64,000 bases of DNA from the NCBI GenBank assembly GCA_947384285.1, contig CANDGI010000009.1, positions 1 to 64,000 on the forward strand, in the 5' to 3' direction. Within the stretch, counting starts at the first letter, position 1. The number at the start of each line of letters is the position of its first letter. The position numbers and the translations under genes are program-made. Source of the stretch: an uncultured Lachnospiraceae bacterium. Lineage in GTDB: Bacteria > Bacillota > Clostridia > Lachnospirales > Lachnospiraceae. Under the pieces are notes generated by a model. It was not told where the DNA came from. It saw nothing but the letters and a program-made list of their open reading frames with translations, and searched no databases. Positions 2,194 to 24,689 of the stretch are shown in pieces.

Positions 2194-3735
2194 ATGAGCA
2201 AAAAACCTGCAGTATTAATGATTTTAGATGGATTCGGATTAAATGAAAAGCACGAGGCAAATGCAGTATATGAGGCAGATACGCCCAATATCGATGGACT
2301 GATGAAGGATTGTCCTTTTGTCCGGGGTTATGCAAGCGGGCTTTCGGTAGGCCTGCCGGATGGACAGATGGGCAATTCTGAGGTAGGCCATTTGAATATG
2401 GGTGCAGGAAGAATTGTATACCAGGAACTGACCAGAATCAGCAAGGAGATTGAGGATGGTGATTTCTTTAAAAATGAAGCATTGCTGAAGGGCATGAAGA
2501 ATGTAAAAGACAACAATTCCGCCCTTCATTTGTATGGGTTATTATCAGACGGGGGCGTACACAGCCATATCACCCATTTATATGGATTGCTGGAAATGGC
2601 AAAGCGGGAGGGCATTGAGAAGGTTTATGTGCACTGTTTCCTGGATGGGCGCGATACCTCCCCGACTTCCGGTAAAGGTTTTATGGAGCAATTGGAAGAT
2701 AAGATGAAGGAAATCGGTGTCGGCGAGATTGCAACCGTGATGGGACGTTACTATGTGATGGATCGCGACAACCGTTGGGACCGGGTAGAAACCGCTTACA
2801 AAGCCCTTGCTTATGGTGAAGGAAAACGTGCTGCCAATGCAGTGGAGGCAGTAGCCGCTTCCTATGCAGAGGATGTTACAGATGAATTTGTGGTTCCCAC
2901 TGTCGTGGAGAAGGATGGCAAGCCAGTTGCAGCGATTAACGACAAGGACAGCATTATTTTCTTTAATTTCCGTCCTGACCGGGCAAGGGAGATTACAAGA
3001 ACCTTCTGTATGGAAGAGTTTGAAGGATTTGACCGAGGCTCCAGGAAAGATGTGACTTATATCTGCTTTACCGAATATGATGTGACAATTCCAAACAAAA
3101 CTGTGGCATTCCATAAGGTGGAACTGACCAATACCTTCGGACAGTTTTTGGCAGACCATGGCAAGACTCAGGCAAGAATTGCCGAGACAGAAAAATATGC
3201 CCATGTTACCTTCTTCTTTAACGGCGGCGTGGAGGAGCCCAACCAGGGAGAAGACAGAATCCTTGTAAATTCCCCGAAAGTGGCAACTTATGACTTGAAG
3301 CCGGAAATGAGCGCTTACGAGGTCTGCGACAAGCTGGTGGAAGCAATCAAATCCGATAAATATGATGTGATTATCATTAACTTTGCAAATCCAGACATGG
3401 TAGGCCATACCGGTGTAGAAGCCGCTGCAATCAAGGCAGTAGAAGCAGTGGATACCTGCGTAGGCAAGGCTGTAGCAGCTCTGAAGGAAGTGGATGGCGT
3501 AATGTTCCTTTGTGCAGACCACGGAAATGCAGAGCAGCTGATTGACTATAACACAGGGGAAAGCTTCACCGCCCATACCATCAATCCGGTACCCTTTATC
3601 CTGATTAATTACGACGACAGCTATACGCTGCGGGAAGGCGGCTGCCTGGCAGATATCGCCCCCACCTTAATTGAAATTATGGGCATGGAGCAGCCAGAAG
3701 AAATGACAGGAAAATCCTTGCTGGTAAAACGCTGA
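2194..3735 (+). CDS. gpmI: 2,3-bisphosphoglycerate-independent phosphoglycerate mutase
   Basis: Interconverts 3-phosphoglycerate and 2-phosphoglycerate in glycolysis using two Mn ions and a phosphoserine intermediate. Alkaline-phosphatase-type metal motifs are visible: LMILDGFGL at the N-terminus, the catalytic serine in MGNSEVGHLNMGAGR (Ser62), FLDGRDTSP, and late metal ligands in NFANPDMVGHTG and CADHGNAEQ. The start at 2194 (MSKKPAVLM) is chosen over an in-frame ATG at 2149 because AAAGGGAG precedes it and family members begin there; the product is 513 residues, the usual size. In many Firmicutes gpmI sits directly beside eno; here PilZ and three purine genes lie between them. Confidence 0.97.
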   Translation: MSKKPAVLMILDGFGLNEKHEANAVYEADTPNIDGLMKDCPFVRGYASGLSVGLPDGQMGNSEVGHLNMGAGRIVYQELTRISKEIEDGDFFKNEALLKGMKNVKDNNSALHLYGLLSDGGVHSHITHLYGLLEMAKREGIEKVYVHCFLDGRDTSPTSGKGFMEQLEDKMKEIGVGEIATVMGRYYVMDRDNRWDRVETAYKALAYGEGKRAANAVEAVAASYAEDVTDEFVVPTVVEKDGKPVAAINDKDSIIFFNFRPDRAREITRTFCMEEFEGFDRGSRKDVTYICFTEYDVTIPNKTVAFHKVELTNTFGQFLADHGKTQARIAETEKYAHVTFFFNGGVEEPNQGEDRILVNSPKVATYDLKPEMSAYEVCDKLVEAIKSDKYDVIIINFANPDMVGHTGVEAAAIKAVEAVDTCVGKAVAALKEVDGVMFLCADHGNAEQLIDYNTGESFTAHTINPVPFILINYDDSYTLREGGCLADIAPTLIEIMGMEQPEEMTGKSLLVKR

Positions 3736-3840
3736 TTAGAGTTCTTCATTTATGCCAGCCAACTGTGAGGATAGCAGGACTGGTGATTTCAGCAGGATTG
3801 CTTTATCAATGGTTAATTGTAATTTATTCTGTAAAATCAA

Positions 3841-3938
3841 GGGGTTATCGGGAAATGATAAGTTATCCACAATATATATTGTGACGTTTTCAACAGCACA
3901 ACCATATATTGTAGAAAAATTCCATTTCCCGGCACCCC
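3841..3938. repeat. Palindromic repeat family A, copy 1
   Basis: A roughly 98-bp near-palindrome. The left arm GGGGTTATCGGGAAATG pairs with the right arm CATTTCCCGGCACCCC, with inner arms around CCACAATATATATTGTG and CATATATTGTAG, so it can fold as one long hairpin. TTTTTAT follows the right arm, so it may also stop transcription 105 bases after gpmI. Copies of the same element lie at 24713-24805 and, as a half copy in reverse orientation, at 30721-30783. No open reading frame of substance is inside. Confidence 0.85.
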
Positions 3939-4265
3939 CTTTTTATATCTTTTGAATTAGCGGCTCTTTAACAAGAGATTTGGTGATATAAGAATTTGAG
4001 GAAAAATTTGGGAACTTGCATATTTTTATATTGTTATTGGGAGATATGTGGTACACGTTTATAACGTTGCAGTATTTGCTGTTGCAAAAAGAGACGGAGA
4101 GCGGATATTTTTAACCGATATAAATCTGAAAATGTATTATGGAAAACAATTCTTGAAAAAAGCTGAAAGAACTTATTCCTAATCTGCAGGCGGCAGACAA
4201 GAGAGATGAAGACGTGCAGAAAAGATTGTTCCGTATCCCAATATTGAAAATTCTTTTTGATATAG
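3939..4265. other. Non-coding stretch with one doubtful small frame
   Basis: No recognised gene. A 44-codon frame at 4048-4182 (+) starts with GTG after GGGAGA and contains AKRDGERIFLTDINLKMYYG, which looks mildly protein-like, but the spacing to the start is poor and I do not recognise it. It could be a gene relic. Confidence 0.3.
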
Positions 4266-4313
4266 AAAAAGCTGCCGTACAAGAATTTCACATTCTGCTG
4301 CGGCAGCTTTTTT
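4266..4313. terminator. Bidirectional terminator beyond the PilZ gene
   Basis: AAAAAGCTGCCG pairs with CGGCAGCTTTTTT around a 23-base loop. T-tracts flank the stem on both strands. It lies just past the stop of the minus-strand PilZ gene and probably ends that transcript. Confidence 0.75.
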
Positions 4314-4323
4314 GTGCCTCATC

Positions 4324-4704
4324 TTATGTACAAGGAATAAAATGAGCGCAGCTAGCTGTTTTTTCGTTGTCATTCATATACTCTTGGATAGAACTACGGA
4401 AAGAATCTTCCAATTCAATAAATTCACAGCCATATGCATATCGGCTATGTTCCACTGCAGAACAATGGAGAATGTTCAATGTTACCAAAAATCCTGGCAT
4501 GGCGCCCAGCGTAAGGCAGGCGTGAAATTGGTATTGCGGCGGAAGGATACTCTCAGAAATAAATCCAACGCCATGCTCAGAAATATGTGTCAGCACAAGG
4601 GGGACTTCCAAATGATAAATGCCGTTTGCATCCTGTCTGTAAAGATCACAGATATCAAGATGAACTTCGCTAGGAATTCGTTGGCTTCTGCGTTTTTCCA
4701 GCAT
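4324..4704 (-). CDS. PilZ domain protein, probable c-di-GMP receptor
   Basis: A 126-residue single-domain protein. PilZ domains bind cyclic di-GMP and alter motility or envelope functions. The two binding motifs are recognisable: RRSQRIPSEV near the N-terminus (RxxxR type) and THISEHGVGFISES (D/NxSxxG type, with the first position changed to H). The start is supported by AAAGGAGGTTTAAGAAACC directly before the ATG. It is transcribed alone, with its own promoter-like sequence and a terminator. An HD-GYP gene (36.7 kb), cheV and the flagellar operon in the same window fit a c-di-GMP/motility role, but the target is unknown. Confidence 0.8.
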   Translation of the reverse strand: MLEKRRSQRIPSEVHLDICDLYRQDANGIYHLEVPLVLTHISEHGVGFISESILPPQYQFHACLTLGAMPGFLVTLNILHCSAVEHSRYAYGCEFIELEDSFRSSIQEYMNDNEKTASCAHFIPCT

Positions 4705-4749
4705 GGTTTCTTAAACCTCCTTTATAATTTTTTGTAGTATTTTGGTACT

Positions 4750-4778
4750 AGTCTATCATGAGTTTCCCAAGATGGCAA
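4750..4778 (-). promoter_or_regulatory. Probable promoter of the PilZ gene
   Basis: On the minus strand TTGCCA and TAGACT are separated by 17 bases, about 50 bases upstream of the PilZ start. The match to the sigma-A consensus is moderate. Confidence 0.45.
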
Positions 4779-4792
4779 GTAAAAAATATTCA

Positions 4793-4822
4793 TTGACGAA
4801 TCAAAACCCCCTGTATTATAAT
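4793..4822 (+). promoter_or_regulatory. Sigma-A type promoter of purC
   Basis: TTGACG, an 18-base spacer and a perfect TATAAT, with the purC start 55 bases further on. It probably drives purC-purF-purB. No purine riboswitch fold was recognised in the short leader. Confidence 0.75.
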
Positions 4823-4877
4823 AAACCCGATACATGAGCAGGATGCCAAAACAGGGACAGGAAGAATGGAGGAAACA

Positions 4878-5756
4878 ATGAGTATTCAGGAATTTAAACC
4901 AGTAAAAGAAGGAAAAGTACGTGAGGTCTATGACAACGGAGATAATCTTATTATTGTGGCAACCGACAGAATATCAGCTTTTGATGTGATTTTAAAAAAC
5001 AAAATCACCCAGAAAGGCGCAATTTTAACACAGATGTCCAAATTTTGGTTTGACTTTACCAAGGATATTGTGCCAAACCATATGCTTTCTACCAATGTGG
5101 CGGATATGCCTGAATTTTTCCAGAATGAGAATTTTGATGGAAACAGCATGAAATGCAGGAAATTGGAGATGCTGCCGGTAGAATGCATTGTCCGGGGATA
5201 TATTACCGGAAGCGGCTGGGAGAGTTATCAGAAGAACGGGACAGTATGCGGAATCCAGCTGCCGGAAGGCTTAAAGGAATCGGACAAGCTGCCAGAGCCT
5301 ATCTATACGCCTACCACCAAGGCGGAGCTGGGGCTTCATGACGAACACATTACCTTTGAAGAAAGCGTGGAGATTTTAGAAAAGCTTCATCCAGGCAAAG
5401 GCGCAGATTATGCGAAGCAGATTCAGGAATGTACGATTAATTTATATAAAAAATGTGCGGAATACGCACGGAGCAAGGGAATCATCATTGCAGACACCAA
5501 ATTTGAGTTTGGTTTGGATGAAAATGGAACGGTAGTCCTGGGGGATGAAATGCTGACGCCGGACAGCTCCAGGTTCTGGCCCCTGGATGGATACGAGCCG
5601 GGAAAATCACAGCCTTCTTTTGACAAGCAGTTTGTCCGGGACTGGCTGAAACAGAATCCAGACAGTGATTACCTGCTGCCGGAAGAAGTGGTAATGAAAA
5701 CAGTGGATAAGTACAAAGAAGCATATGAGCTTTTGACAGGAGAGAAGTTTGCATAA
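4878..5756 (+). CDS. purC: Phosphoribosylaminoimidazole-succinocarboxamide synthase
   Basis: Joins CAIR and aspartate with ATP to give SAICAR in de novo purine synthesis. Family motifs are clear: KEGKVREVYD, ATDRISAFDV, the substrate-binding segment VECIVRGYITGSGWESY, IIADTKFEFG and LTPDSSRFWP. The start at 4878 (MSIQEFKP) is preferred to the ATG at 4866, because the latter codons themselves form the ribosome binding site GGAGGAA. The protein has 292 residues, typical of the longer PurC type. It is the first gene of a purC-purF-purB block with short gaps. Confidence 0.95.
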   Translation: MSIQEFKPVKEGKVREVYDNGDNLIIVATDRISAFDVILKNKITQKGAILTQMSKFWFDFTKDIVPNHMLSTNVADMPEFFQNENFDGNSMKCRKLEMLPVECIVRGYITGSGWESYQKNGTVCGIQLPEGLKESDKLPEPIYTPTTKAELGLHDEHITFEESVEILEKLHPGKGADYAKQIQECTINLYKKCAEYARSKGIIIADTKFEFGLDENGTVVLGDEMLTPDSSRFWPLDGYEPGKSQPSFDKQFVRDWLKQNPDSDYLLPEEVVMKTVDKYKEAYELLTGEKFA

Positions 5757-5766
5757 AAGGTAGAGA

Positions 5767-7215
5767 ATGATTATGGACAGCAGGATGGAGTTAGGCATGG
5801 ATTCCGACAGGCTGCATGAGGAATGCGGCGTGTTCGGCATCTATGATTTTGATGGAAATGACGTGGCCTCCACCATTTATTACGGGCTCTTTGCATTGCA
5901 GCACAGAGGGCAGGAAAGCTGCGGCATTGCAGTCAGCGACACCAGGGGTCCCAAAGGCAAAGTGGTTTCACAGAAGGGAATGGGGCTGGTCAACGAGGTT
6001 TTTACCCAGGAATCTTTTGCGGATATGAAAGGGGATATCGGCGTGGGCCATGTGCGCTATTCCACAGCCGGGGCTTCCACCCGGGAAAATGCTCAGCCTT
6101 TGGTGTTGAATTATGTGAAAGGGACGCTGGGCCTTGCCCACAACGGGAATTTAATCAATGCCAATGAGCTGCGGCAGGAATTGGCATATACCGGAGCGAT
6201 TTTTCAGACAACCATTGATTCGGAAGTGATTGCCTACCATATTGCCAGGGAACGGCTGAATACCCATGCGGTGGAGGATGCGGTGCGCCGGGCGGCAGAG
6301 AAATTGAAAGGAGCCTTTTCTCTGGTGGTCATGAGCCCCAGGAAGCTAATCGGAGCCAGGGATCCGTTCGGGTTTAAGCCCCTATGCATTGGAAAGAGGG
6401 AGAATGCCTATATCATTACCTCTGAAACCTGCGCATTGGAGACTATCGGGGCAGAATTTGTGCGGGATGTGCTTCCCGGGGAAGTGGTGGCCATCACGCC
6501 GGAAGGAATCAAGTCGGATACCAGTCTTTGCCTGCCCAGGGAGCGGGAGGCAAGATGCATTTTTGAATATATTTATTTTGCAAGGCCAGACAGCCATATC
6601 GACGGGGTAAGCGTATATGCCGCCAGAATTCGTGCCGGACAGTTTTTGGCTATGGATTCCCCCGTGGAAGCAGATTTGGTGGTGGGCGTGCCAGAGTCTG
6701 GAAATGCAGCGGCTTTGGGATACGCCATGGAATCCGGCATTCCCTATGGCAATGCATTTGTGAAAAATGGCTATGTAGGCCGCACTTTTATCAAGCCTGG
6801 GCAAAGCAGCAGGGAATCCAGTGTAAGGGTGAAACTGAACGTGCTGTCAGAGGCAGTACGGGGAAAACGGGTGATTATGATTGACGATTCCATTGTAAGG
6901 GGCACCACCTCCGGCCGGATTGTAAGGCTGCTCCGGGAATCCGGGGCAGCTGAGGTGCATGTGCGCATTTCTTCTCCGCCTTTTTTGTGGCCCTGCTACT
7001 TTGGAACGGACATTCCCGAAAGGGAGCAGCTGATTGCCTGCCACCGTTCGGTGGAGGAAATCCGTCAGATTATCGGCGCGGATTCCCTGGGATATTTAAG
7101 GATTGAACGCCTTGGACAGATGGCGGAAGGGCGGCCTATCTGCAAAGGCTGCTTTACCGGGGAATATCCGCTGGAACCGCCGAAAGAGGATATCCGCGGA
7201 GATTTTGAAAAATAA
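5767..7215 (+). CDS. purF: Amidophosphoribosyltransferase
   Basis: Catalyses the first committed step of purine synthesis, PRPP plus glutamine to phosphoribosylamine. It has an N-terminal glutamine amidotransferase (Ntn) domain whose nucleophile is the Cys in HEECGVFGIYD (Cys20); the 19 residues before it form a propeptide removed by autoprocessing in this family. The PRPP motif VIMIDDSIVRGTTS lies in the C-terminal phosphoribosyltransferase domain. Cysteines in RCIFEY, PCYFGT and CKGC match the 4Fe-4S type of PurF found in Bacillus. Length 482 is normal. It starts 10 bases after purC. Confidence 0.96.
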   Translation: MIMDSRMELGMDSDRLHEECGVFGIYDFDGNDVASTIYYGLFALQHRGQESCGIAVSDTRGPKGKVVSQKGMGLVNEVFTQESFADMKGDIGVGHVRYSTAGASTRENAQPLVLNYVKGTLGLAHNGNLINANELRQELAYTGAIFQTTIDSEVIAYHIARERLNTHAVEDAVRRAAEKLKGAFSLVVMSPRKLIGARDPFGFKPLCIGKRENAYIITSETCALETIGAEFVRDVLPGEVVAITPEGIKSDTSLCLPREREARCIFEYIYFARPDSHIDGVSVYAARIRAGQFLAMDSPVEADLVVGVPESGNAAALGYAMESGIPYGNAFVKNGYVGRTFIKPGQSSRESSVRVKLNVLSEAVRGKRVIMIDDSIVRGTTSGRIVRLLRESGAAEVHVRISSPPFLWPCYFGTDIPEREQLIACHRSVEEIRQIIGADSLGYLRIERLGQMAEGRPICKGCFTGEYPLEPPKEDIRGDFEK

Positions 7216-7289
7216 GGGATTGGGAATTCACAGAAAGAAAACATTTGCAGAGATTTAGAGAAAAATATAAGCTAGGAAGGAGAAAAACA

Positions 7290-8741
7290 ATGGCAGCAGA
7301 CAGATACAACAGCCCATTGTCAGAGCGGTATGCAAGCAAGGAGATGCAGTATATTTTTTCCCCGGATATGAAATTTTGTACCTGGCGGAAATTGTGGATT
7401 GCTCTTGCAGAAACGGAAATGGAGCTGGGCTTAAGCGAGAATGGAAAGCCTGTGATTACGCAGGAACAGGTTGATGAACTGAAAAGCCATGCAGAGGATA
7501 TCAACTATGAGGTGGCAAAAGAGCGGGAAAAACTGGTAAGGCATGATGTGATGAGCCATGTATATGCTTACGGCCAGCAGTGCCCAAAGGCAGCTGGAAT
7601 TATCCATTTGGGGGCAACCTCCTGCTATGTAGGGGACAATACAGACATTATTGTGATGCATAAAGCGTTAAAGCTGGTGCAGAAAAAGCTGGTGAACGTG
7701 ATTGGCAAGCTGGCAAAGTTTGCAGATACCTACAAGGAGCTGCCCACCCTTGCATTTACCCATTTCCAGCCAGCGCAGCCTACCACAGTGGGAAAGCGTG
7801 CTGCCTTGTGGCTGCAGGAATTCCTGATGGATTTGGAGGATTTGGAGTATGTACTGGGGAGCCTGAAGCTGCTGGGCTCCAAAGGAACCACTGGAACCCA
7901 GGCAAGCTTTCAGGAATTATTTGCAGGAGACCAGGAAACCATTGATAAGATTGATCCCATGATTGCAGAAAAAATGGGATTTGCAGAGTGCTATGCCGTA
8001 TCCGGCCAGACTTATTCCAGGAAGGTGGATACCAGGGTATTGAATGTTCTGGCGGGCATTGCAGCCAGCGCCCATAAAATGTCCAATGACATCCGCCTTT
8101 TGCAGCATCTAAAAGAAGTGGAAGAGCCTTTTGAGAAAAATCAGATTGGCTCCTCCGCCATGGCCTACAAGCGCAACCCCATGCGCAGCGAGCGGATTGC
8201 TTCTCTGGCCCGCTATGTGATGGTGGACGCCTTAAACCCAGCCATCACCTCTGCCACCCAGTGGTTTGAGCGGACCTTGGACGATTCCGCCAATAAGCGA
8301 CTGTCGGTGCCGGAAGGATTTCTTGCGGTGGACGGAATTCTGGATTTGTGCCTGAATGTGGTGGACGGGCTTGTGGTATATGAAAAAGTAATCCGCAAGC
8401 ATATGATGGCGGAGCTTCCCTTTATGGCAACGGAAAATATTATGATGGATGCAGTGAAAAACGGCGGCAGCCGCCAGGAAATGCATGAAAAAATCCGTCA
8501 GCTTTCCATGGAAGCAGGCAGGCATGTCAAGGAGGAAGGGAAAGAGAATAACCTTCTGGAGCTGATTGCAGCAGATCCAGCTTTCCATCTGACCCTGGAA
8601 GAATTGGAGGGTTCCATGGATCCGGCGAAATATGTGGGGCGGGCGCCCATTCAGGTGGAGAAGTTTTTGGCACAGGCGGTACAGCCGGTGCTGGAGGGGC
8701 ATAAAGATATGTTAGGCATGACGGCTGAGATTAATGTGTAG
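7290..8741 (+). CDS. purB: Adenylosuccinate lyase
   Basis: Cleaves SAICAR to AICAR and adenylosuccinate to AMP, releasing fumarate. The fumarase/aspartase superfamily signature GSSAMAYKRNPMRSE is intact and contains the flexible catalytic loop serine; the substrate-contact segment FTHFQPAQPTTVGKR is also present. The start at 7290 follows GGAAGGAG and gives MAADRYNSPLSERY, where family proteins begin, rather than the upstream in-frame ATG at 7245. The product has 483 residues. A strong hairpin follows, so this is the last gene of the purC-purF-purB unit. Confidence 0.96.
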   Translation: MAADRYNSPLSERYASKEMQYIFSPDMKFCTWRKLWIALAETEMELGLSENGKPVITQEQVDELKSHAEDINYEVAKEREKLVRHDVMSHVYAYGQQCPKAAGIIHLGATSCYVGDNTDIIVMHKALKLVQKKLVNVIGKLAKFADTYKELPTLAFTHFQPAQPTTVGKRAALWLQEFLMDLEDLEYVLGSLKLLGSKGTTGTQASFQELFAGDQETIDKIDPMIAEKMGFAECYAVSGQTYSRKVDTRVLNVLAGIAASAHKMSNDIRLLQHLKEVEEPFEKNQIGSSAMAYKRNPMRSERIASLARYVMVDALNPAITSATQWFERTLDDSANKRLSVPEGFLAVDGILDLCLNVVDGLVVYEKVIRKHMMAELPFMATENIMMDAVKNGGSRQEMHEKIRQLSMEAGRHVKEEGKENNLLELIAADPAFHLTLEELEGSMDPAKYVGRAPIQVEKFLAQAVQPVLEGHKDMLGMTAEINV

Positions 8742-16458: not shown

Positions 16459-16578
16459 ATGTCTTTAGAAGAGCAAAGGGAAGCAGCGATTAACAGGTAT
16501 GCAGATTTAATGCGTATAAAAGCCTATGAGACAGGTGAGAATAAGGAGCTTGATTATCAGATTAAGCTGCCAAAGTGA
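16459..16578 (+). CDS. Small protein of unknown function
   Basis: A 39-residue frame (MSLEEQREAAINRYADLM...) with AGGGAGGCGG about nine bases upstream. The frame is open further back to 16390, but that part overlaps the immediate tmRNA downstream region and has no ribosome binding site. Charged, helical, no membrane segment. Between it and the next gene (16579-16853) lie only repeat family B and sequence without recognisable content. Confidence 0.4.
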   Translation: MSLEEQREAAINRYADLMRIKAYETGENKELDYQIKLPK

Positions 16579-16695
16579 AATTATCTAGTTTTGGAATTGA
16601 TTATTCAGAGCTTGAGTTTTAAAACGAAGTGGTTCCATATAAAAATTATCGGTAGAGCAAACAAGAATTAAATAGCAAATCAGCCATCATGCTCA

Positions 16696-16751
16696 GCCTG
16701 CCGTCTAGCGGGCCGCATGGCCATCCATGCCGTGAAAGCTTTAGCTTCCAC
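16696..16751. repeat. Two-hairpin repeat family B, copy 2
   Basis: CCTGCCGTCTAGCGGG (stem 1), then GGCCGCATGGCC (small palindrome), then GTGAAAGC-TTTA-GCTTCCAC (stem 2, one mismatch). The core GCGGGCCGCATGGCC is shared with the copy at 25096. Confidence 0.6.
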
Positions 16752-16853
16752 AGTAGGCAATACCGGGCGCAAGTCTATGATAGGCTTACGTCCGTGTTTT
16801 TGTATACAGGAGATTAATACTCAAATAGCAATAAAACGAAGCAGGAGTTTCAT

Positions 16854-17543
16854 ATGAAAAAGAACAGAATTGTAGTAAACGGCTTTGCTTTTACAGACCG
16901 CCAGACAGCCCAAAAGGCGATGAAGGAAGCAGAAAGCATACAGTATGTAAAAGAGAAATTAGATATGAAAAATCCCAGGATGGTATTGGAAATGTACCGC
17001 AAATTGGTTAGGGAGAAGGTGTTTGCAACTCCGGTGGGGCTGATTTATCTAAAACAGCTGCAGGATTACCTTTCTAATATACCGGAAATGAAAGCAGAGG
17101 GGCTAGAGCCGATCCAGGCGGAAAGCATGCAGAGCTTAAGCGGGGCAGCTAGAAATTATCCGGCTGGGAAGGAAGCAGGCTTGTCCCAGCCAGGGACTGT
17201 GCAGCAAAAAGATGCATACAAGGCTTCTAGCCCAGAAGAGATGGCAGAGTGGTATGAGGAGAAATTAGAGCAGGAAAAACAGAAAAGACGGGCGGCGGAG
17301 ATGAAGCAGAGGCAGACGGAACAGGGTCTTAGGAGAAAAAAAGAATTTTTCCGTTTCAGCGTTATCCTGAATGTTTTTCTCCTGCTTGTGGTAGTGGGAA
17401 TGCTTGTGATTACCTTGATGGATAACACCCCCAATATGGTTGATTATGAAAACAAGATTGTTGACAAATACGTGGAATGGGAGCGGGAATTGGAAGAACG
17501 GGAAGAGCGGATGAAGCAATGGGAGAAAGAGCTGGGACAGTAA
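16854..17543 (+). CDS. Single-pass membrane protein, unknown function
   Basis: 229 residues. A soluble N-terminal part (MKKNRIVVNGFAFTDRQTAQ..., about 1-80) is predicted to be helical; a charged coiled-coil region (about 125-162, EEKLEQEKQKRRAAEMKQ) leads to a membrane segment (about 168-189, FSVILNVFLLLVVVGMLVITL) and a second charged helix at the C-terminus. GCAGGAGTTTC precedes the ATG. It is the gene just before a response regulator, but a repeat element lies between them. I do not recognise the family. Confidence 0.7.
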   Translation: MKKNRIVVNGFAFTDRQTAQKAMKEAESIQYVKEKLDMKNPRMVLEMYRKLVREKVFATPVGLIYLKQLQDYLSNIPEMKAEGLEPIQAESMQSLSGAARNYPAGKEAGLSQPGTVQQKDAYKASSPEEMAEWYEEKLEQEKQKRRAAEMKQRQTEQGLRRKKEFFRFSVILNVFLLLVVVGMLVITLMDNTPNMVDYENKIVDKYVEWERELEEREERMKQWEKELGQ

Positions 17544-17546
17544 GCT

Positions 17547-17586
17547 CCATGGGCATTCTTATTATGGAAAACGAAGGCTTTTATAG
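17547..17586. repeat. Degenerate second-hairpin part of repeat family B
   Basis: CCATGGGCATTCTTATTATGG followed by TATGGAAAACGAAGGCTTTTATA resembles the second half of the copy at 59257-59313, with several mismatches in the stem. Only the second hairpin is present. Confidence 0.35.
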
Positions 17587-17681
17587 CATTGGCTGAGCAG
17601 GAAATTTCACAGATTTGCCATAATCATATGATATGATGGGAAAGCTAAGAATGATTGATGGAAGCGGAAGGTGTGAAACGG

Positions 17682-18359
17682 ATGGAGAAGCTGAAAATAC
17701 TGGTAGTAGATGACGAGAGCAGGATGCGGAAGCTGGTGAGGGATTTTCTGGTAAAGAAAGATTTTGAAGTGGTGGAAGCGGAGGATGGAGAAGAGGCCCT
17801 GAATAAGTTCTATGAGCAGAAAGATATTGCATTGATTATCCTGGATGTTATGATGCCAAAGATAAACGGGTGGGAAGTCTGCAAAGAAATACGGGAGAGC
17901 TCCAAGACTCCCATTATCATGCTGACAGCCAAGGGAGAAGAGAGCGACGAGTTGATGGGATTTGACATCGGGGCGGATGAATATATTTCCAAGCCTTTCA
18001 GCCCAAAGATTCTGGTTGCCCGGGTGGAAGCCATTTTAAGGCGCACTGGCAAGAAGGAAGAGGAGAACCTGGAAATCAGCGGCATTACCATTGACAGGCT
18101 TGGACATCAGGTGCTGGTGGATGGAAAAGAGCTGGAATTAAGCTACAAGGAGTTTGAGCTTTTAACTTATTTTATAGAAAACAAGGGGATTGCCCTTTCC
18201 AGGGAAAAGATTTTAAACCATGTATGGAATTACGATTATTTTGGCGATGCCAGAACCATAGACACTCATGTGAAAAAGCTACGCAGCAAGCTGGGGGAGA
18301 AGGGCGGCTACATTAAAACCATCTGGGGGATGGGCTACAAGTTCGAGGTGGGCGAATGA
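17682..18359 (+). CDS. OmpR-family response regulator
   Basis: DNA-binding regulator, 225 residues. Receiver domain 1-120 with the acidic pocket VVDDES, the phospho-acceptor Asp in LIILDVMMPKINGWE, the conserved Thr/Lys in MLTAKGE and SKPFSPKIL. The C-terminal winged helix (about 130-225) includes LSYKEFELLTYFIENKG, DARTIDTHVKKLRSKLG and the terminal KTIWGMGYKFE. The start at 17682 follows GGAAGGTG; an ATG at 17655 is possible. The partner kinase would be expected directly downstream, but the next kinase is 2.7 kb away, beyond a transporter/protease cassette. Confidence 0.93.
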   Translation: MEKLKILVVDDESRMRKLVRDFLVKKDFEVVEAEDGEEALNKFYEQKDIALIILDVMMPKINGWEVCKEIRESSKTPIIMLTAKGEESDELMGFDIGADEYISKPFSPKILVARVEAILRRTGKKEEENLEISGITIDRLGHQVLVDGKELELSYKEFELLTYFIENKGIALSREKILNHVWNYDYFGDARTIDTHVKKLRSKLGEKGGYIKTIWGMGYKFEVGE

Positions 18360-18821
18360 AAGCAGTAGACATCAAGCATTGATTTCTGCTCATTCCAAGG
18401 ATGTCGGCTTACGTCTAAACAGGCGGTTTTAACCAGAATACTGCCAAAAATGAGGAATTTATGGAAGATAAGTTCTGTTATTATATCAAACTGCTCATTT
18501 GTACAGAACCCCAAAAGTGATATCATCGTTAAGTATTTTGATATAGGGGAGTATGACAAACAATTCATAGATAGAAAGGGCAGTGACATAGAGTGACTGG
18601 AGGCATTTTCATTAAGTGCATCAGATATGGATGGTTATAAGCAAATTATATAAACAAATGGATTGAGAAAAATAAATAAGGATTTTTGCAAATGATGATG
18701 GCAGCCGCAATTTAAAGCGGCTGTCATTTTCTTCGTGTTAAATTTTTTATGTATAGCAGGATTTGCATGTATAATACAAGAGGGAACCTAAAGATTTTAA
18801 TTTGAAACGGGGGAGGTGTAT
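18360..18821. other. Gap with a relic-like frame, a terminator and a promoter
   Basis: This is the left part of the sequence that separates the regulator from the kinase. A 48-codon frame at 18450-18596 (+) contains NPKSDIIVKYFDIGEYDKQF and a second frame over the same stretch contains MEDKFCYYIKLLICTEPQK, so a frameshifted gene relic is possible. A hairpin with ATGGCAGCCGC and GCGGCTGTCAT at 18698-18733 ends in a T-rich run. A TG-extended TATAAT at 18770-18775 probably drives the ABC gene. No Walker A coding sequence was found here in any frame. Confidence 0.5.
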
Positions 18822-19541
18822 ATGGAAGAATTACGCACAAGAGCAGCAAATGAACACATTGGGATGGTTTCTGTTATGGGAAAAGAACCTTCCAAATATG
18901 ATTCGGATGTTTACGCTTCTTTTGGCATGGTATTGGATAATGACGGGTTATATGACAGGCTCAGCTGTTATGATAACTTAGATTTATATGCAAGGATTTA
19001 TTCTATCCGCAACCGGCAGAATAAAATATATGAGCTTTTGGAGGAGGTTGAGCTTTCAGAGGAATCAAAAAAAAGCGTTTCTGCTCTTTCAAAGGGAATG
19101 CGCCAAAGATTATCCTTCGCCCGGGCAATTCTCCATTCACCTAAAATTGTTTTTTTAGATGAGCCTACAAGCGGATTAGATCCTGCGACCACATTAAAAA
19201 TACATTCCTTAATGAGAAGATTAAAAGAAGAAGGTACTACGTTTTTTTTGACAACCCATAATATGGCCGAAGCACAGCAGATGTGCGGCCATATCGCGCT
19301 GCTGCATGAGGGACGCATTGTGGAAGATGGCACGCCGGAAGCCATTTGCCTGCGCCACCGCCCGGAATGCAAAGTCTCAATTGAGATGGATGATGGGAAT
19401 TGTTATGAAACCGATGCAGGAAATTTGGCGGATCTGCTTCAGAAAATAAAGAAGCCCCAGAACGATATCCTTCGGATTCATTCTAATGAGCCAAATTTGG
19501 AAAGCGTGTTTATCAAGATTACAGGGAGAAGGTTAGAATGA
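18822..19541 (+). CDS. ABC transporter ATP-binding protein lacking Walker A
   Basis: 239 residues that align with the second two thirds of a drug/peptide-type ABC ATPase. Present: the Q-loop-proximal region VYASFGMVLDNDGLYDRL, the C-loop LSKGMRQRLSFARA, Walker B IVFLDEPTSGLDP, the H-loop TTHN and a C-terminal domain ending NLESVFIKITGR. Absent: the first strands and the P-loop (GxxGxGKS/T); the protein begins MEELRTRAANEHIGMVSVMG, just after where Walker A should be. A strong GGGGGAGGTG precedes the ATG at 18822. It is coupled by a four-base overlap to a permease. Either a 5'-truncated pseudogene or a protein with a lost P-loop; it should not hydrolyse ATP alone. Confidence 0.85.
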   Translation: MEELRTRAANEHIGMVSVMGKEPSKYDSDVYASFGMVLDNDGLYDRLSCYDNLDLYARIYSIRNRQNKIYELLEEVELSEESKKSVSALSKGMRQRLSFARAILHSPKIVFLDEPTSGLDPATTLKIHSLMRRLKEEGTTFFLTTHNMAEAQQMCGHIALLHEGRIVEDGTPEAICLRHRPECKVSIEMDDGNCYETDAGNLADLLQKIKKPQNDILRIHSNEPNLESVFIKITGRRLE

Positions 19542-20236
19542 GTGCATTACATCATATTGCGGCTGTCTTTCACAAACAAGTGAAGGACTCTTTTAAAAAC
19601 AGATTGATTTTAGTTGTGTTTTTCATGTTTCCTGTATTGGCAATGGTTTTTAAAGAAATTGTTTCCAAAGAGGAGCTTGACTTTATGCTGCCTTCTTTTA
19701 TGACTATGAATACGGTCATGATTCCGATTATTTTTATGTCCAGCATTATAGCGGAAGAAAAAGAGAAAAAGACGCTGAGAATGCTGATTATGTCGAATGT
19801 CCGCTCTTGGGAATATCTGCTGGGCGTGGGGATATGCGTGTTTCTGCAGGCATTGTTAAGCACCTGTGTGTTCCTGGCAATTATTCCAAATTCTATGGAT
19901 GAGGCAATAGATTTTATCGTTGTGTCAACCATAGGGATTATCTGCTCCCTGCTCATTGGCGCGATTCTTGCAATTATCGCTAAAAATCAGATGAGCGTCG
20001 GCCCAGTCACAGCTCCTGTCTCTATGCTGATCGGGCTGCTTCCAATGTTTTCAGCCATGAATGATAAACTGGAACATGCGGCAAAAGCATTTTATTCCTA
20101 TTATGTAAGAGAATCATTTGTATCCCATTCCTTGGAAATTGATGAATCGTCCTGGGCTGTTATTGGCTTGAATTTTGCCGTTTTGCTTTTTCTTTTCATT
20201 ATTCTTTATAAATATAAGGGTTTAGGCAATGAATAA
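19538..20236 (+). CDS. ABC-2 type transporter permease
   Basis: 232 residues with about six membrane segments (near 20-38, 55-70, 95-118, 125-150, 155-175, 205-225), the size and layout of an ABC-2 permease. The cytoplasmic motif IIAEEKEKKTLRMLIMSNV after the second segment is typical of this type (EEKEKKTLE...LxxxP/S). It overlaps the ATPase gene (ATGA) and the protease gene downstream by eight bases, so the three are translated as one unit. Together with an M50 protease this resembles peptide-export or immunity loci; the substrate is unknown. Confidence 0.85.
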   Translation: MSALHHIAAVFHKQVKDSFKNRLILVVFFMFPVLAMVFKEIVSKEELDFMLPSFMTMNTVMIPIIFMSSIIAEEKEKKTLRMLIMSNVRSWEYLLGVGICVFLQALLSTCVFLAIIPNSMDEAIDFIVVSTIGIICSLLIGAILAIIAKNQMSVGPVTAPVSMLIGLLPMFSAMNDKLEHAAKAFYSYYVRESFVSHSLEIDESSWAVIGLNFAVLLFLFIILYKYKGLGNE

Positions 20237-20906
20237 ACGAAGATGCACAAGATATGAACGGTTTGAGGCTTCTTCTGGAACGAGATACTATGATCGCAGA
20301 AATCATGCTGTTGTGGAGGAGGTTATATCAGAGGATAGGGTAACTTGGGAGCAGGAAGATATCTGTGCTGCATCCTGTTATCCGCATAAATTACTGTCCA
20401 AAATAAAAATCCATCCGTTAGTGATAGACCTGGCAATCCTATGGATTCTTATGGCATACATATGGCATTTTGCAGATTTAAGGTTTGTAACTGCTGTTCC
20501 TAAGGGGCACAGCATATGTTATGCGGCAGCTGTAGAACTGTCCATTTTGGTTCTTTCTATTTTTTTACATGAAATGTCTCATGGAATAGCCGCAGTATCC
20601 CAAGGCGCTTTTGTGGCGGAAATCGGAGTGGCAAAGGCAGGATTTGGATTTCAGTATTTCACAAAAGTAATATGGGACAGCCCTGCAAAATGGGAGAAAA
20701 TGCGTTTCTTTTTCAGCGGTGTTGCTATGAATATGTTTTTAAGCGTTATTGGCATCGTATTGTTTACAGAGTTGGACCGGCAGTGTGGTTTTTATCTATA
20801 TCTTACAAATACCTTCTTTTCTGTGTTTAATTTACTGCCGGTCAAATGTATGAATTCCGATGGATATCATATGATGCAATTGGTTTTGCAAAAAAAAGAA
20901 GAATAA
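20229..20906 (+). CDS. M50 (site-2 protease type) membrane metalloprotease
   Basis: 225 residues with membrane segments at about 62-80, 95-118, 145-170 and 175-195. The zinc-binding motif HEMSH lies in FLHEMSHGIAAVSQG, and the third ligand is in the C-terminal NLLPVKCMNSDGYHM (family NxxP...DG). Intramembrane proteases of this kind occur in RiPP and epipeptide clusters of the YydFGHIJ type, where M50, ATPase and permease genes stand together. Here no radical-SAM enzyme or clear precursor peptide is visible. The N-terminal 45 residues are soluble and basic. A hairpin with a T-tract at about 20906-20952 follows. Confidence 0.8.
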   Translation: MNKRRCTRYERFEASSGTRYYDRRNHAVVEEVISEDRVTWEQEDICAASCYPHKLLSKIKIHPLVIDLAILWILMAYIWHFADLRFVTAVPKGHSICYAAAVELSILVLSIFLHEMSHGIAAVSQGAFVAEIGVAKAGFGFQYFTKVIWDSPAKWEKMRFFFSGVAMNMFLSVIGIVLFTELDRQCGFYLYLTNTFFSVFNLLPVKCMNSDGYHMMQLVLQKKEE

Positions 20907-21100
20907 AAAACGTCAGAAGTGAGCCGTTGGCACAGGCGCTTTTGGCGTTTTTTATTTTGGCGGAGAACCGGAGCGTGTGGAAACGCATGCGTAAAATATG
21001 TATATTATGTGAAATCACACGAAACAGGTGGAAATCAGAGGGATGAAGTGGTATAAAGGAAGAGAAGGAAAAAGAGACAGGAAGAAGCAGAGGTGAAAGG

Positions 21101-22570
21101 ATGAAGCATTCCATTACGGGAAAGATAACAGCTGTCATGATAGGCATCGTGGCCGGTACAGTGCTGTTGTGCTGGTTTATCAATACATCCCTTCTGGAGG
21201 ATTACTATGTAGAGTACAAACAGCAGAAGCTGCTGTCCACCTTTCAAATGGCGGACCGGGCCAGCAGCGAAGGGGAAATTGGGACAGAAAAGTTTATCAT
21301 CCGGCTGGAAAAGCAATGTGCCAACAGCAATATTACTATGATGATCATAGGCCCCGACCGAACCATCATACACTCCAATGTGGGGGATGACAGAACCCTG
21401 CTGCTGCAGTTTTTGGAGCTTATTTTCAAGGTGGATGAGGATGCGGAGATATTGGAAAATACAGGAGAGTATGTGGTAGAGAAAACCGATGACAGAAGGC
21501 TGAAAACAGATTATCTTGTCTTGTGGGGGAACCTGCAGGATGGGAATCTGATTTTGATGCGCACAGCCGTGGAAAGCATCAAGGAAAGCGTGGAGATTGC
21601 CAACCGCTTTTTGGCATATGTGGGGGTTGTGGCGGTCATTGTCTGCGCGGTGGTTATCTATGTGGTTACCAGAAGGATTACAAATCCGATTTTGCAGCTT
21701 GCAGATATTTCCAAGAGAATGGCTAACCTTGATTTTGATGCCAAGTTCCAAAGCAGGGGGAAAAATGAGGTTGATTTGCTGGGGGAGCATATGAATCAGC
21801 TGTCCGAGACACTGGAAGAGACGATTTCAGAATTGAAAAGCGCCAACAATGAATTAAAGATAGATATTGAGAAGAAAACAGAAATGGATGAAATGCGCAA
21901 GGAATTTATTTCCAACGTGTCCCACGAGCTGAAAACACCCATTGCCTTAATCCAGGGATACGCAGAAGGATTGCAGGAGTGTATCAATGATGATGCGGCA
22001 AGCCGGGAATTTTATTGCGAGGTGATTATGGATGAAGCAGATAAGATGAACCAGCTTGTGAAAAACCTGCTTACTTTGAATCAGCTGGAATCTGGCAGTG
22101 AACAGGTGGTTTTTGAACGGTTTGATTTGATAGAGTTAATCCATGGGGTGATTAATTCCACTGCCATATTACGGGAGCAGAACGGCATTTCCCTGGCAAT
22201 GCATGGGATTGGCCCGGTGTATGTCTGGGCGGATGAGTTTAAGACGGAACAGGTGCTGACCAATTATATCAGCAATGCCATCCATTATGCGCTGGGGGAA
22301 AAGAAAATAGAAATTACAGTCCTGCCTGGCTGGGAGACAGTCCGGGTAGAGGTCTTTAACACTGGAAATCATATTCCAGAGCAGGATTTGGAGCATATCT
22401 GGGATAAATTTTATAAAGTGGACAAGGCGAGAACCAGAGAATACGGGGGGAACGGCATTGGATTGTCTATCGTAAAGGCTATTGCTGATTCTTTCCACAG
22501 GGAATGCGGCGTCAGCAACGTGGAGGGAGGAGTAAAATTCTGGTTTGAATTAGACAGCAGGAGCCAGTGA
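21101..22570 (+). CDS. Sensor histidine kinase
   Basis: 489 residues. Membrane segment 1 at about 9-28, an extracytoplasmic sensor of about 140 residues, membrane segment 2 at about 170-190, HAMP (192-245, RRITNPILQLADISKRM), then the dimerisation/phosphoacceptor helix FISNVSHELKTPIALIQGYAEGL with the H box, and the ATPase domain with N box NYISNAIHYA, G1 FNTGNHIPEQ, F box IWDKFYKVDKAR and G2 YGGNGIGLSIVKAI. AGAGGTGAAAGG stands before the ATG. It is the probable partner of the regulator at 17.7 kb. Its last codons lie inside the first unit of a 28-bp tandem repeat. Confidence 0.92.
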   Translation: MKHSITGKITAVMIGIVAGTVLLCWFINTSLLEDYYVEYKQQKLLSTFQMADRASSEGEIGTEKFIIRLEKQCANSNITMMIIGPDRTIIHSNVGDDRTLLLQFLELIFKVDEDAEILENTGEYVVEKTDDRRLKTDYLVLWGNLQDGNLILMRTAVESIKESVEIANRFLAYVGVVAVIVCAVVIYVVTRRITNPILQLADISKRMANLDFDAKFQSRGKNEVDLLGEHMNQLSETLEETISELKSANNELKIDIEKKTEMDEMRKEFISNVSHELKTPIALIQGYAEGLQECINDDAASREFYCEVIMDEADKMNQLVKNLLTLNQLESGSEQVVFERFDLIELIHGVINSTAILREQNGISLAMHGIGPVYVWADEFKTEQVLTNYISNAIHYALGEKKIEITVLPGWETVRVEVFNTGNHIPEQDLEHIWDKFYKVDKARTREYGGNGIGLSIVKAIADSFHRECGVSNVEGGVKFWFELDSRSQ

Positions 22571-22730
22571 AGGCTTGCGGGGTGCAAAGAGCCAGTGAAG
22601 GCTTGCAGGGTGCAAAGAACCAGTGAAGGCTTGCGGGGTGCAAAGAGCCAATGAAGGCTTGCGGGGTGCAAAGAGCCAGTGAAGGCTTGCGGGGTGCAAA
22701 GAGCCAGTGAAGGCTTGCGGGGTGCAAAGA
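22563..22730. repeat. 28-bp minisatellite, six units plus a partial one
   Basis: Six head-to-tail units of GCCAGTGAAGGCTTGCGGGG+TGCAAAGA, starting at 22563, 22591, 22619, 22647, 22675 and 22703, with at most two substitutions per unit; a degenerate partial unit runs to about 22750. The first unit contains the stop codon of the kinase gene. There are no spacers, so it is not a CRISPR array. Since 28 is not a multiple of three, all reverse frames stay open, producing false ORFs. Beyond it, 22751-22851 holds nothing recognisable. Confidence 0.95.
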
Positions 22731-22851
22731 GGCAAAGGCTTGCAGGAGGATGCAGCAGATATCAGAGAGAGAAACCAGGGAAGCGAAGGGAATCTGTTTT
22801 GGGAAAAACCGTGGGGAAATGATAAATTTCTTCCAGAGGGAAAATTCGTTG

Positions 22852-22880
22852 TTGCCCTGTGGATTAAATGATGGTAGAAT
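22852..22880 (+). promoter_or_regulatory. Probable promoter of the lipoprotein gene
   Basis: TTGCCC, a 17-base spacer and TAGAAT, 45 bases before the lipoprotein start. Confidence 0.6.
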
Positions 22881-22925
22881 AGAAAACAGAAAAGGAATAT
22901 GTAACAATAAAAAGGAGATATACTT

Positions 22926-23651
22926 ATGAAGAAATTCATAAAAAGGGGAACGGCACTGATAGCGGCAGCATTTCTTCTTGCCGGATGCGGGGATGAGATG
23001 GTGGTATTGACGGAGAGTGAAGAGGCGGTTGTTGTCAATTATTCTGCTGGAACCCTTGCAAAGCATAATATCCACCAGCAGGAAGGGATGTCTGGGGTAT
23101 ATCCAAAGGAAGAGGAAGAAGAGCCTCCGGTAGTGGAGGAGGAAAAGAAGGAACAGGAAGGCCAGGAAACCACGAGCCAGGAGACTGAGGGGCAGGAACA
23201 GGCAGGCGGCCAGGCAGAGGATGGCAGCGAAGCCGCTGGCGGAGCAACCTTGACGGAAGCGCTGGCAGTTCCAGGACTAGAATTTTCTTATGTCGATTAT
23301 TCTGTCACCAATAATTATAAGCAGGGAGAATATTTTTCCCTGGATGCAGCAGAGGGAAACACGTTTGTGATATTGAATGTAAATATGACAAATACAGGTG
23401 CGGAAGCGGTTTCCTGTGACTTGTTAAGCAGACAGCCTATCTTCACGTTGAAAATAAATGAGGAGGCAGGCGTGAAGAATGAGGTCACTATGCTTGAAAA
23501 TGATTTGTCCACCTATATCGGCACTTTAGAACAGGGACAGACAGCAGCAGGGATTATATTGTTTGAAGTATCTGCATCAGTTACAGAGAATATATCGTCC
23601 ATTCAGCTTTCCATGCAGATGGGCGAGACTATAACGAATATTGAAATGTAA
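22926..23651 (+). CDS. Lipoprotein with DUF4352-like domain
   Basis: 241 residues exported and lipid-anchored: basic N-terminus, hydrophobic stretch and lipobox LLAGC with the modified Cys at 21. Residues about 55-105 are an acidic, low-complexity linker (EEEEEPPVVEEEKKEQEG, then Gln/Gly/Glu). The C-terminal 120 residues have the immunoglobulin-like pattern of DUF4352 proteins (FVILNVNMTNTGAEAVSCD..., GTLEQGQTAAGIILFEV). AAAAGGAGATATACTT precedes the ATG. Role on the cell surface unknown. It stands alone with its own promoter. Confidence 0.8.
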   Translation: MKKFIKRGTALIAAAFLLAGCGDEMVVLTESEEAVVVNYSAGTLAKHNIHQQEGMSGVYPKEEEEEPPVVEEEKKEQEGQETTSQETEGQEQAGGQAEDGSEAAGGATLTEALAVPGLEFSYVDYSVTNNYKQGEYFSLDAAEGNTFVILNVNMTNTGAEAVSCDLLSRQPIFTLKINEEAGVKNEVTMLENDLSTYIGTLEQGQTAAGIILFEVSASVTENISSIQLSMQMGETITNIEM

Positions 23652-23703
23652 GAAATTTTTATAAAATTGAAAAAATGTTGTATATTTTTCAGAAAGTATG
23701 TGC

Positions 23704-23709
23704 TATAAT
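23704..23709 (+). promoter_or_regulatory. Extended -10 element upstream of cheV
   Basis: TGC-TATAAT, 54 bases before the cheV start, with no good -35 at 17 bases (a TTGTAT lies 20 bases upstream). No sigma-28 box was found. Confidence 0.5.
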
Positions 23710-23762
23710 GTAGAAAAGCATATTTGACGCGGAAATATACCGGAGAGGAGAGAGTTACTATT

Positions 23763-24689
23763 ATGGATACAAATATTCTTTTGGAGAATGGCACAAATGA
23801 GCTGGAGGTTTTAGAATTTACATTAGCTGGAAATCATTACGGTATCAATGTAGCGAAAATTCGGGAGATTTTAACATATCAGCCCGTCACTCCGATTCCT
23901 AATGCACATCCAAGTGTGGAAGGTATATTTATGCCAAGAGATACGATGATAACTGTAATTAATCTGCGCAACTGTCTGGCACTGCCGGATATTGACAGGG
24001 ACGGCCTGTTTATCATCACCAATTTTAATAAACTGAACATTGCATTCCATGTAGACGAGGTTTGCGGAATCCACAGGCTTTCCTGGGCAGATATTATTAC
24101 ACCGGATTCTACCATTAATATAGAAGACAATGGAGTATCTACTGGAGTAATTAAGCTGGAAGACCGGCTGATTGTTATTCTGGACTTCGAGAAGATTGTA
24201 ACAGATATCAGCCCGGAAACAGGCTTGCAGGTATCTGATTTAGACGATCTGGAAGAGCGTGTCAGAAGCGATTCTCCGATTATGGTTGCAGAGGATTCCC
24301 CGCTGCTGTCCAAATTGATTACGGACTGTCTGAAGAAGTCCGGCTATACCAAGCTGATTGTGAATAATAATGGGCAGGAGCTATGGGATAGGCTTTGCGA
24401 GTTTAGAAAATCCGGGGAACTGGATGACAAGGTACATATGGTAATTACTGATATTGAGATGCCGTTGATGGATGGGCACCGGCTGACTAAATTGATTAAA
24501 GAGGATGACGAGTTAAAGCACATTCCGGTTGTTATTTTCTCATCCCTGGTAAATGAAGAGATGAGGCGTAAGGGTGAAATGCTTGGAGCAGATGCCCAGC
24601 TGACAAAACCGGAGATTGGAAAACTGGTAAGCGCCATTGATGATCTTTTGGATAAGAGGAAAGAAGCATTGGCACGTAAGCAAGGCTGA
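23763..24689 (+). CDS. cheV: Chemotaxis protein CheV
   Basis: Couples chemoreceptors to CheA and adapts the signal by phosphorylation. 308 residues: an N-terminal CheW-like domain (about 10-165, VLEFTLAGNHYGINVAKIREIL, HPSVEGIFMPRDTMITVINLR) and a C-terminal receiver domain (about 175-305) with EDSPLLSKL, the acceptor Asp in MVITDIEMPLMDGH, VIFSSLVNEE and the Lys in DAQLTKPEIG. The start at 23763 follows GGAGAGGAGAG. It is isolated from the flagellar operon at 58 kb. A palindromic repeat 24 bases downstream may act as its terminator. Confidence 0.94.
   Translation: MDTNILLENGTNELEVLEFTLAGNHYGINVAKIREILTYQPVTPIPNAHPSVEGIFMPRDTMITVINLRNCLALPDIDRDGLFIITNFNKLNIAFHVDEVCGIHRLSWADIITPDSTINIEDNGVSTGVIKLEDRLIVILDFEKIVTDISPETGLQVSDLDDLEERVRSDSPIMVAEDSPLLSKLITDCLKKSGYTKLIVNNNGQELWDRLCEFRKSGELDDKVHMVITDIEMPLMDGHRLTKLIKEDDELKHIPVVIFSSLVNEEMRRKGEMLGADAQLTKPEIGKLVSAIDDLLDKRKEALARKQG

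What the first reader, a model, noticed from the sequence alone, without database searches (positions are those of the whole stretch)
18360..21100. A transporter/protease cassette splits a response regulator from its histidine kinase
The OmpR-type regulator ends at 18359 with the ATGA arrangement usual before an overlapping kinase start, yet the kinase begins only at 21101. The 2.7 kb between holds an ABC ATPase, an ABC-2 permease and an M50 protease, all coupled by overlaps. ATGAAAGCA right at the regulator end and ATGAAGCA at the kinase start form a near-repeat that could be an insertion scar. The gene trio recalls YydH-YydI-YydJ of Bacillus epipeptide clusters, but no radical-SAM gene or precursor is present. 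It may be a peptide export/immunity module placed under envelope-stress control, or a decaying RiPP locus.
Basis: partly seen in the sequence, partly recalled or inferred. Interest (0 to 1): 0.7.

Follow-up and report, generated by a model that had tools for sequence, protein, structure and literature searches.

The report
Decaying transporter cassette splitting sensor operon
In a gut bacterium, a block of three foreign genes that once probably processed and pumped a small peptide landed between the two halves of a sensor-regulator gene pair; the sensor gene now seems to have its own switch, and the foreign block is falling apart.

Summary
The kinase does start 2,741 bp after the regulator, and the gap holds an ABC-2 permease, an M50 protease and an ABC ATPase. 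But the ATPase has lost its Walker A motif (about 50 N-terminal residues), and a 456-bp non-coding spacer with a strong terminator-like hairpin separates it from the regulator. In close relatives (HK identity 72% or more) the usual state is a 4-bp regulator/kinase overlap (15 of 22 loci). The trio is an insertion shared only with the sister species Lachnospiraceae bacterium 3-1, where 511 bp of the same insert remain. In the permease pieces kept there, 34 of 46 differences fall at third codon positions, so the protein was under selection before it decayed. The closest locus found with the same gene order lies in a YcaO RiPP-type cluster; the window's draft genome shows no YcaO and its contig no radical SAM, so a stranded RiPP export/immunity end is the best reading. 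A second terminator and a promoter-like block lie between trio and kinase, arguing against operon read-through. That block was found only before this kinase, in split loci. Insertion plus decay is well supported; function and transcription are inferred.

The parts
17655..18359 (+). OmpR-type response regulator (likely start ATG at 17682)
   Evidence: Pfam Response_reg and Trans_reg_C; 96% identical in the sister species
18360..18815 (+). left spacer of the insert, no recognisable gene, GC 35%; a 21-bp stretch at 18450-18470 is also in the sister's relic
18697..18728 (+). terminator-like hairpin before the trio
   Evidence: folding z -5.3
18816..19541 (+). ABC ATPase remnant without Walker A (likely start ATG at 18822)
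19538..20236 (+). ABC-2 permease, full length compared with homologues of 228-240 aa
   Evidence: Pfam ABC2_membrane_3 47.2 bits, cut-off 31.6
20229..20906 (+). M50 (site-2 type) membrane protease with HEMSH; no N-terminal RRE-like part
   Evidence: Pfam Peptidase_M50 36.6 bits, cut-off 27.2; weak NCBIfam daptide and YydH/LiaK matches
20904..20954 (+). terminator-like hairpin after M50
   Evidence: 20934-20950; folding z -4.9; a similar sequence in the sister
21005..21057 (+). promoter-like block before the kinase (TGGAAA, 17 bp, TATAAA), also in strain 3-1, Eubacterium sp. 14-2 and L136
21090..21095 (+). GAGGTG ribosome-binding motif of the kinase; in the 4-bp-overlap loci it lies inside the regulator's last codons
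21101..22570 (+). sensor histidine kinase (HAMP, HisKA, HATPase_c)
   Evidence: 90% identical in the sister

Best explanation
In the common ancestor of this species and Lachnospiraceae bacterium 3-1, a foreign, self-contained unit (ABC ATPase, ABC-2 permease, M50 membrane protease; probably the processing, export or self-protection end of a RiPP cluster) was inserted at the 4-bp overlap of an OmpR-type regulator and its kinase. The regulator's end and the kinase's ribosome-binding site both survived, and the kinase is now probably read from its own promoter just inside the right end of the insert. The unit was kept by selection on its proteins for much of the time since the two species split. 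It is now eroding independently: the window's ATPase has lost Walker A, so it can hardly power transport, and strain 3-1 has lost all but about 0.5 kb. Shown: insertion, shared origin, past constraint on the permease, ATPase truncation in this assembly. Inferred: foreign origin, peptide export/immunity function, separate kinase transcription, loss of transport.
For: 4-bp overlap in 15 of 22 close loci; M50 only in this genome among 80 relatives and 397 genomes of the family. Window and strain 3-1 are sisters, 100/99, and 3-1 keeps, in order, a 21-bp piece of the left spacer, two permease pieces, the M50 3' end and the right spacer. 34 of 46 permease differences at third codon positions (p 2e-8 against one third). 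Walker A missing. GC 35-42% in left spacer and trio against 46%. Same gene order in a YcaO cluster with full-length ATPase at 50% identity. Terminator-like hairpins on both sides; promoter-like block before the kinase.
Against: The homology of the M50 genes is thin: 31% over 74 residues, E 8e-6, and the G677 M50 as query does not find the window genome at E 1e-5. In the 60 bp of M50 kept by strain 3-1 only 6 of 10 differences are at third positions. Nothing shows that the remnant ATPase is not made or that the trio is silent. The generic promoter scan finds no excess of promoter-like sites (13 against 12.1 expected) and its rule excludes this block; it lists another weak site at 20978-21006. 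The draft is 83% complete, so a YcaO could be missing.
Confidence: 0.72

Rival explanations
1. The trio still works: permease and M50 act with an ATPase from elsewhere, or the protease alone acts, giving immunity or peptide processing.
For: Permease and M50 frames are open and the permease was under constraint; the genome has another full-length ATPase/permease pair, 46% and 38% identical (L082); the remnant ATPase frame is open with a good ribosome-binding motif.
Against: Walker A is lost; the sister has deleted nearly everything, so the unit is dispensable there; no modification enzyme found on the contig for radical SAM or in the genome for YcaO.
Confidence: 0.15
2. The ATPase truncation, or the whole arrangement, is an assembly or binning error of this draft genome.
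For: The window is from a draft of 74 contigs, 83% complete; only one genome has the trio.
Against: Strain 3-1, a separately sequenced genome (KE159596.1), carries the relic with the same junction order, so the insertion is real; the truncated frame is clean. The truncation itself rests on this assembly alone.
Confidence: 0.08
3. The trio is ancestral between regulator and kinase and was lost in the other relatives.
For: Gaps over 200 bp occur at 11 of 69 loci.
Against: It would need many losses that all restore the same 4-bp overlap; the other long gaps that I looked into hold unrelated genes or none; the tree puts the overlap on both sides.
Confidence: 0.03

Closest known systems
Relic locus in Lachnospiraceae bacterium 3-1 (KE159596.1; L111, G023)
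   Same: Same insert at the same place: 21 bp of left spacer, permease pieces, M50 3' end, right spacer and promoter-like block, in order
   Different: 511 bp instead of 2,741; ATPase gone, permease and M50 only fragments
YcaO RiPP-type cluster of genome G677 (L074)
   Same: ATPase-permease-M50 in the same order, 50%, 37% and 31% (74 residues) identical
   Different: Full-length ATPase with Walker A, YcaO, three small Ala/Gly-rich ORFs, HTH/TPR regulator; M50 is 354 aa with a longer N-terminal part
yydFGHIJ (epeXEPAB) epipeptide operon of Bacillus subtilis
   Same: An M50-type protease and an ABC transporter side by side (PMC7026026, abstract and passages seen)
   Different: Order protease-ATPase-permease there (recalled); radical SAM epimerase and precursor there, none on this contig; M50 far below the family cut-off
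Daptide clusters (MpaP protease)
   Same: Best NCBIfam match of the M50 protein is the daptide protease, 24.2 bits; ABC transporters co-occur (PMC10036551, passages seen)
   Different: Cut-off 300 not met; no RRE-like N-terminus in the 225-aa protein; other daptide enzymes not sought

Membership tests
Functional ABC-2 exporter | ATPase with Walker A (P-loop) | tested here: not met
   Absent from the ORF and from six frames of 18360-18900
Functional ABC-2 exporter | ABC-2 type membrane protein beside the ATPase | tested here: met
   ABC2_membrane_3 47.2 bits against 31.6
M50 (site-2 type) protease | Pfam Peptidase_M50 above cut-off and HExxH | tested here: met
   36.6 bits against 27.2; HEMSH in the sequence
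Epipeptide cluster (yydFGHIJ) | YydH/LiaK protease above the equivalog cut-off | tested here: not met
   19.1 bits against 225
Epipeptide cluster (yydFGHIJ) | Radical SAM epimerase nearby | tested here: not met
   26 Radical_SAM matches in the genome, none on the window's contig C9
Epipeptide cluster (yydFGHIJ) | Precursor peptide gene | tested here: inconclusive
   No precursor-like ORF of 20 aa or more in 18360-18815 by eye; precursors are hard to recognise
Daptide cluster | Daptide protease above the equivalog cut-off | tested here: not met
   24.2 bits against 300
Daptide cluster | Aminotransferase, oxidoreductase and methyltransferase genes | not tested
   Not sought
YcaO RiPP cluster as in G677 | YcaO enzyme | tested here: not met
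   No PF02624 match in G000 (83% complete) or G023
Regulator-kinase pair | Response_reg with Trans_reg_C; HisKA with HATPase_c | tested here: met
Regulator-kinase pair | Cotranscription of the pair | not testable with these tools
   Hairpins and promoter-like block suggest separate units

The most novel reading that the evidence does not exclude
The 3' end of this regulator gene is a recurrent integration target in Lachnospiraceae: elements that land there leave a copy of the regulator's 3' end beside the kinase and bring, or select for, a kinase promoter with the same TGTGAAA-type box seen upstream of the regulator, so the sensor stays under its regulator after the operon is broken. Support: of 48 loci with a gap or an unlinked regulator, 8 score above 21 for a regulator-end copy beside the kinase; the best are L162 50, L145 37, L111 30, L148 28, L130 26, reached by 0, 1, 1, 2 and 2 of 559 control gene starts, whose four highest are themselves true regulator ends. 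The same 43-53-bp block stands before the kinase in three split lineages: window plus 3-1, Eubacterium sp. 14-2, and the Roseburia-labelled L136. The window's own copy (score 20, 11 of 559) is weak.
Probability: 0.17. Interest if true: 0.65.

Novelty: new member of a known kind. Interest (0 to 1): 0.42.

Why it matters
It catches an operon break at several stages in close relatives (uninterrupted, filled, nearly healed), with evidence that the cargo was once under selection. It suggests how a regulator-kinase pair with overlapping genes survives being split: the kinase gets its own promoter. If the recurrent-target reading holds, a regulator gene end would join the list of integration sites, and the split loci would become a natural experiment on kinase-regulator coupling.

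Tried and rejected
M50 homologues: no match in plasmids; none confirmed among 2 pattern stretches in viral contigs or among 22 in the first GTDB contig scan. The G677 M50 as query found 4 of 397 family genomes (G121, G336, G372, G250) and not the window's own. Rfam on 16500-24000: nothing. Left spacer as a decayed known gene: no Pfam family above its cut-off (one chance-level RHIM match, E 0.03). Left spacer DNA in relatives: own genome plus two short weak matches (E 4.9e-4, 6.8e-4) among 41 genomes. Right spacer DNA in the genus: 7 of 29 genomes match at E 0.01, but apart from the window itself only strain 3-1 matches at this locus (7.9e-11) and the rest are short matches elsewhere; this search missed the 14-2 block that the pattern search found. 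Element-borne replacement of the regulator 3' end in Eubacterium sp. 14-2: last 39 bases 30 of 39 identical to its near relative against 598 of 660 before, too little to claim. The idea that 14-2's 19-kb insert is the parent of the cassette: no M50 match in that genome, and its nearest row on the tree keeps the overlap. TGTGAAA/TTTCACA box: 9 of 23 kinases in split or unlinked loci and 25 of 72 regulators against 26 of 602 control ORFs (Fisher 9e-7 and 3e-13); but the motif was chosen after looking, and 18 of 58 adjacent kinases also show it, which I put down, untested, to the regulator's own coding sequence (HVKKL codons) lying upstream. Structure prediction was not run.

Full report
What is there. 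The window lies in a 3.23-Mb draft genome of 74 contigs, 83% complete. Close relatives carry the names Lachnospiraceae bacterium 3-1, Lachnospiraceae bacterium A2, Petralouisia muris and Eubacterium sp. 14-2. Regulator (17655-18359) and kinase (21101-22570) are intact. Between them lie 456 bp without a recognisable gene, an ABC ATPase remnant (18816-19541), an ABC-2 permease (19538-20236), an M50 protease (20229-20906) and a 194-bp right spacer. GC is 35-42% in left spacer and trio, 44% in the right spacer, and 46% in the regulator, the kinase and the window as a whole.

The ATPase is broken in this assembly. Pfam ABC_tran is matched only from profile position 40. The six full-length homologues aligned begin about 50 residues earlier and carry GLLGPSGAGKTT; the window protein starts right after that motif. 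No such motif lies in six frames of 18360-18900. The signature (SKGMRQR), Walker B (FLDEPTSG) and H-loop regions remain. The ATG at 18822 follows a good ribosome-binding motif (sequence itself), so the remnant may still be translated.

Ancestral state. Of the 80 best kinase loci in the GTDB 220 contig set, 22 have 72% or more kinase identity, which I take as genus level: 15 overlap the regulator by 4 bp, 4 have gaps of 17-75 bp, and 3 have gaps of 431, 511 and 19,252 bp (the last). Over all 80, a same-strand regulator was found upstream in 69, with gaps over 200 bp in 11; the other 11 have no such regulator in the stretch held, in some because the contig ends and in two because it is divergent. 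The genes that I saw in the long gaps are unrelated to the trio (acyltransferase-like, aldo/keto reductase-like, repeat protein and others, named by eye). Splits recur, but the trio is private to this lineage.

Same insert in the sister. Strain 3-1 is sister to the window with 100/99 support in a regulator+kinase tree of 26 rows. Its 511-bp gap keeps, in the window's order, a 21-bp stretch of the left spacer (20 of 21, E 0.001 in that pairwise search), permease pieces of 61 and 192 bp, the M50 3' end, the right spacer and the kinase start. The permease pieces differ at 46 of 253 positions, 34 of them third codon positions (p 2e-8 against one third). For comparison the kinase has 163 of 232 and the regulator 78 of 99 differences at third positions. 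The 60 bp of M50 do not show it (6 of 10). The permease was thus under protein-level constraint for much of the time since the split, and the loss in 3-1 is comparatively recent.

Origin of the trio. The M50 protein finds only itself among 80 relatives and among 397 genomes of the family. Permease homologues occur in 56 of 392 genomes of the order, own genome included. Of 20 neighbourhoods fetched, 19 have an adjacent ATPase with a Walker A pattern (the twentieth only a 75-aa piece), and 1 (L074, genome G677) has an M50 protein that the window's own detects, in the same order. The match is thin (31% over 74 residues, E 8e-6), and the reverse search with the G677 protein does not find the window at E 1e-5. 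That locus is a RiPP-type cluster: YcaO (Pfam 9.6e-48), three small Ala/Gly-rich ORFs (recognised by eye), an HTH/TPR regulator, and a 354-aa M50 with a daptide-protease match of 5.6e-18 that stays below the equivalog cut-off. In daptide clusters an RRE-fused site-2 protease removes the leader (PMC10036551, passages seen). In B. subtilis the protease YydH is thought to release the epipeptide, while YydIJ was postulated as immunity and LiaIH was found to matter more (PMC7026026, abstract and passages seen). The window's genome has no YcaO match, its contig no radical SAM match, and the spacer no precursor-like ORF by eye. A stranded export/immunity end of a RiPP cluster is the most likely identity, by homology only.

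Transcription. Hairpins with U-rich tails stand before the trio (18697-18728) and after M50 (20904-20954), both far stronger than shuffles (z -5.3 and -4.9). A 53-bp block at 21005-21057, with TATAAA 17 bp after TGGAAA, lies before the kinase. The strict pattern occurs at four distinct places in the loci then held (3.18 Mb counted on both strands, with redundancy), each within about 110 bp upstream of this kinase and each in a split locus: window, 3-1, Eubacterium sp. 14-2 and the Roseburia-labelled MAG L136. The 14-2 insert is independent of the window's, because its neighbour on the tree has the 4-bp overlap; independence of L136 is inferred from its distance (61% kinase identity) and was not put on the tree. 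The generic promoter scan finds no excess (13 against 12.1 expected); its rule excludes this block, and it lists another weak site at 20978-21006. Box counts are post hoc. Separate kinase expression is an inference.

Junctions. Over 48 loci with a gap or unlinked regulator, 8 show a regulator-end copy beside the kinase scoring above 21, the highest control once four controls that are true regulator ends are set aside (the 12 loci rescored there were picked). Many gaps show none, for example L131, L146, L180, L181 and L182. Part of each copy is the kinase's own ribosome-binding site, so selection can keep it without site-specific recombination. I identified no recombinase gene in the window's insert; the 14-2 insert region holds a recombinase-like fragment, named by eye.

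Literature. Searches for YcaO with M50 and Lachnospiraceae, YcaO with site-2 protease, split two-component operons, daptides, epipeptides and the named strains showed no listed title about this locus; for three papers I saw passages, for the rest only listings. The library is open-access only.

Verdict. The insertion is real, shared, once selected and now decaying; its biochemical role and the kinase promoter are inferences.

Noticed in passing
L107 (G121:C5), 1266-8034: Daptide-like cluster with unusual partners: two daptide-type proteases (4.8e-39, 6.3e-37), a daptide-type methyltransferase (6.7e-33), all below their cut-offs, beside a YcaO (125.9 bits, domain cut-off 75.65) and a ThiF-like protein (2.6e-30), and a small ORF ending in Thr.
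   Followed up: partly
L074 (G677:C22), 726-7998: RiPP-type cluster: YcaO, three Ala/Gly-rich small ORFs, ATPase, permease, M50 protease, HTH/TPR regulator; product unknown.
   Followed up: partly
window 22561-22731: Six copies of a 28-bp tandem repeat start at the last bases of the kinase gene.
   Followed up: no
L130 / G024:C2, between about 73,250 and 92,510: 19,252-bp insertion between regulator and kinase in Eubacterium sp. 14-2, with transposase-like and recombinase-like fragments (named by eye) and an extra copy of the regulator 3' end.
   Followed up: partly
L016 and L033/L043, just after the regulator stop: The 431-bp gap of G016 and the start of the 14-2 insert carry a similar palindromic sequence around CACGCTAAAGCGTG.
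   Followed up: no
L177 and L178, about 4948-6001: The regulator gene lies divergently to the kinase instead of co-directionally.
   Followed up: no
L082 (G000:C1:167000-177000), 4407-5962: The window's own genome has a second, full-length ATPase/permease pair (46% and 38% identical) beside two small ORFs of 146 and 160 aa.
   Followed up: no
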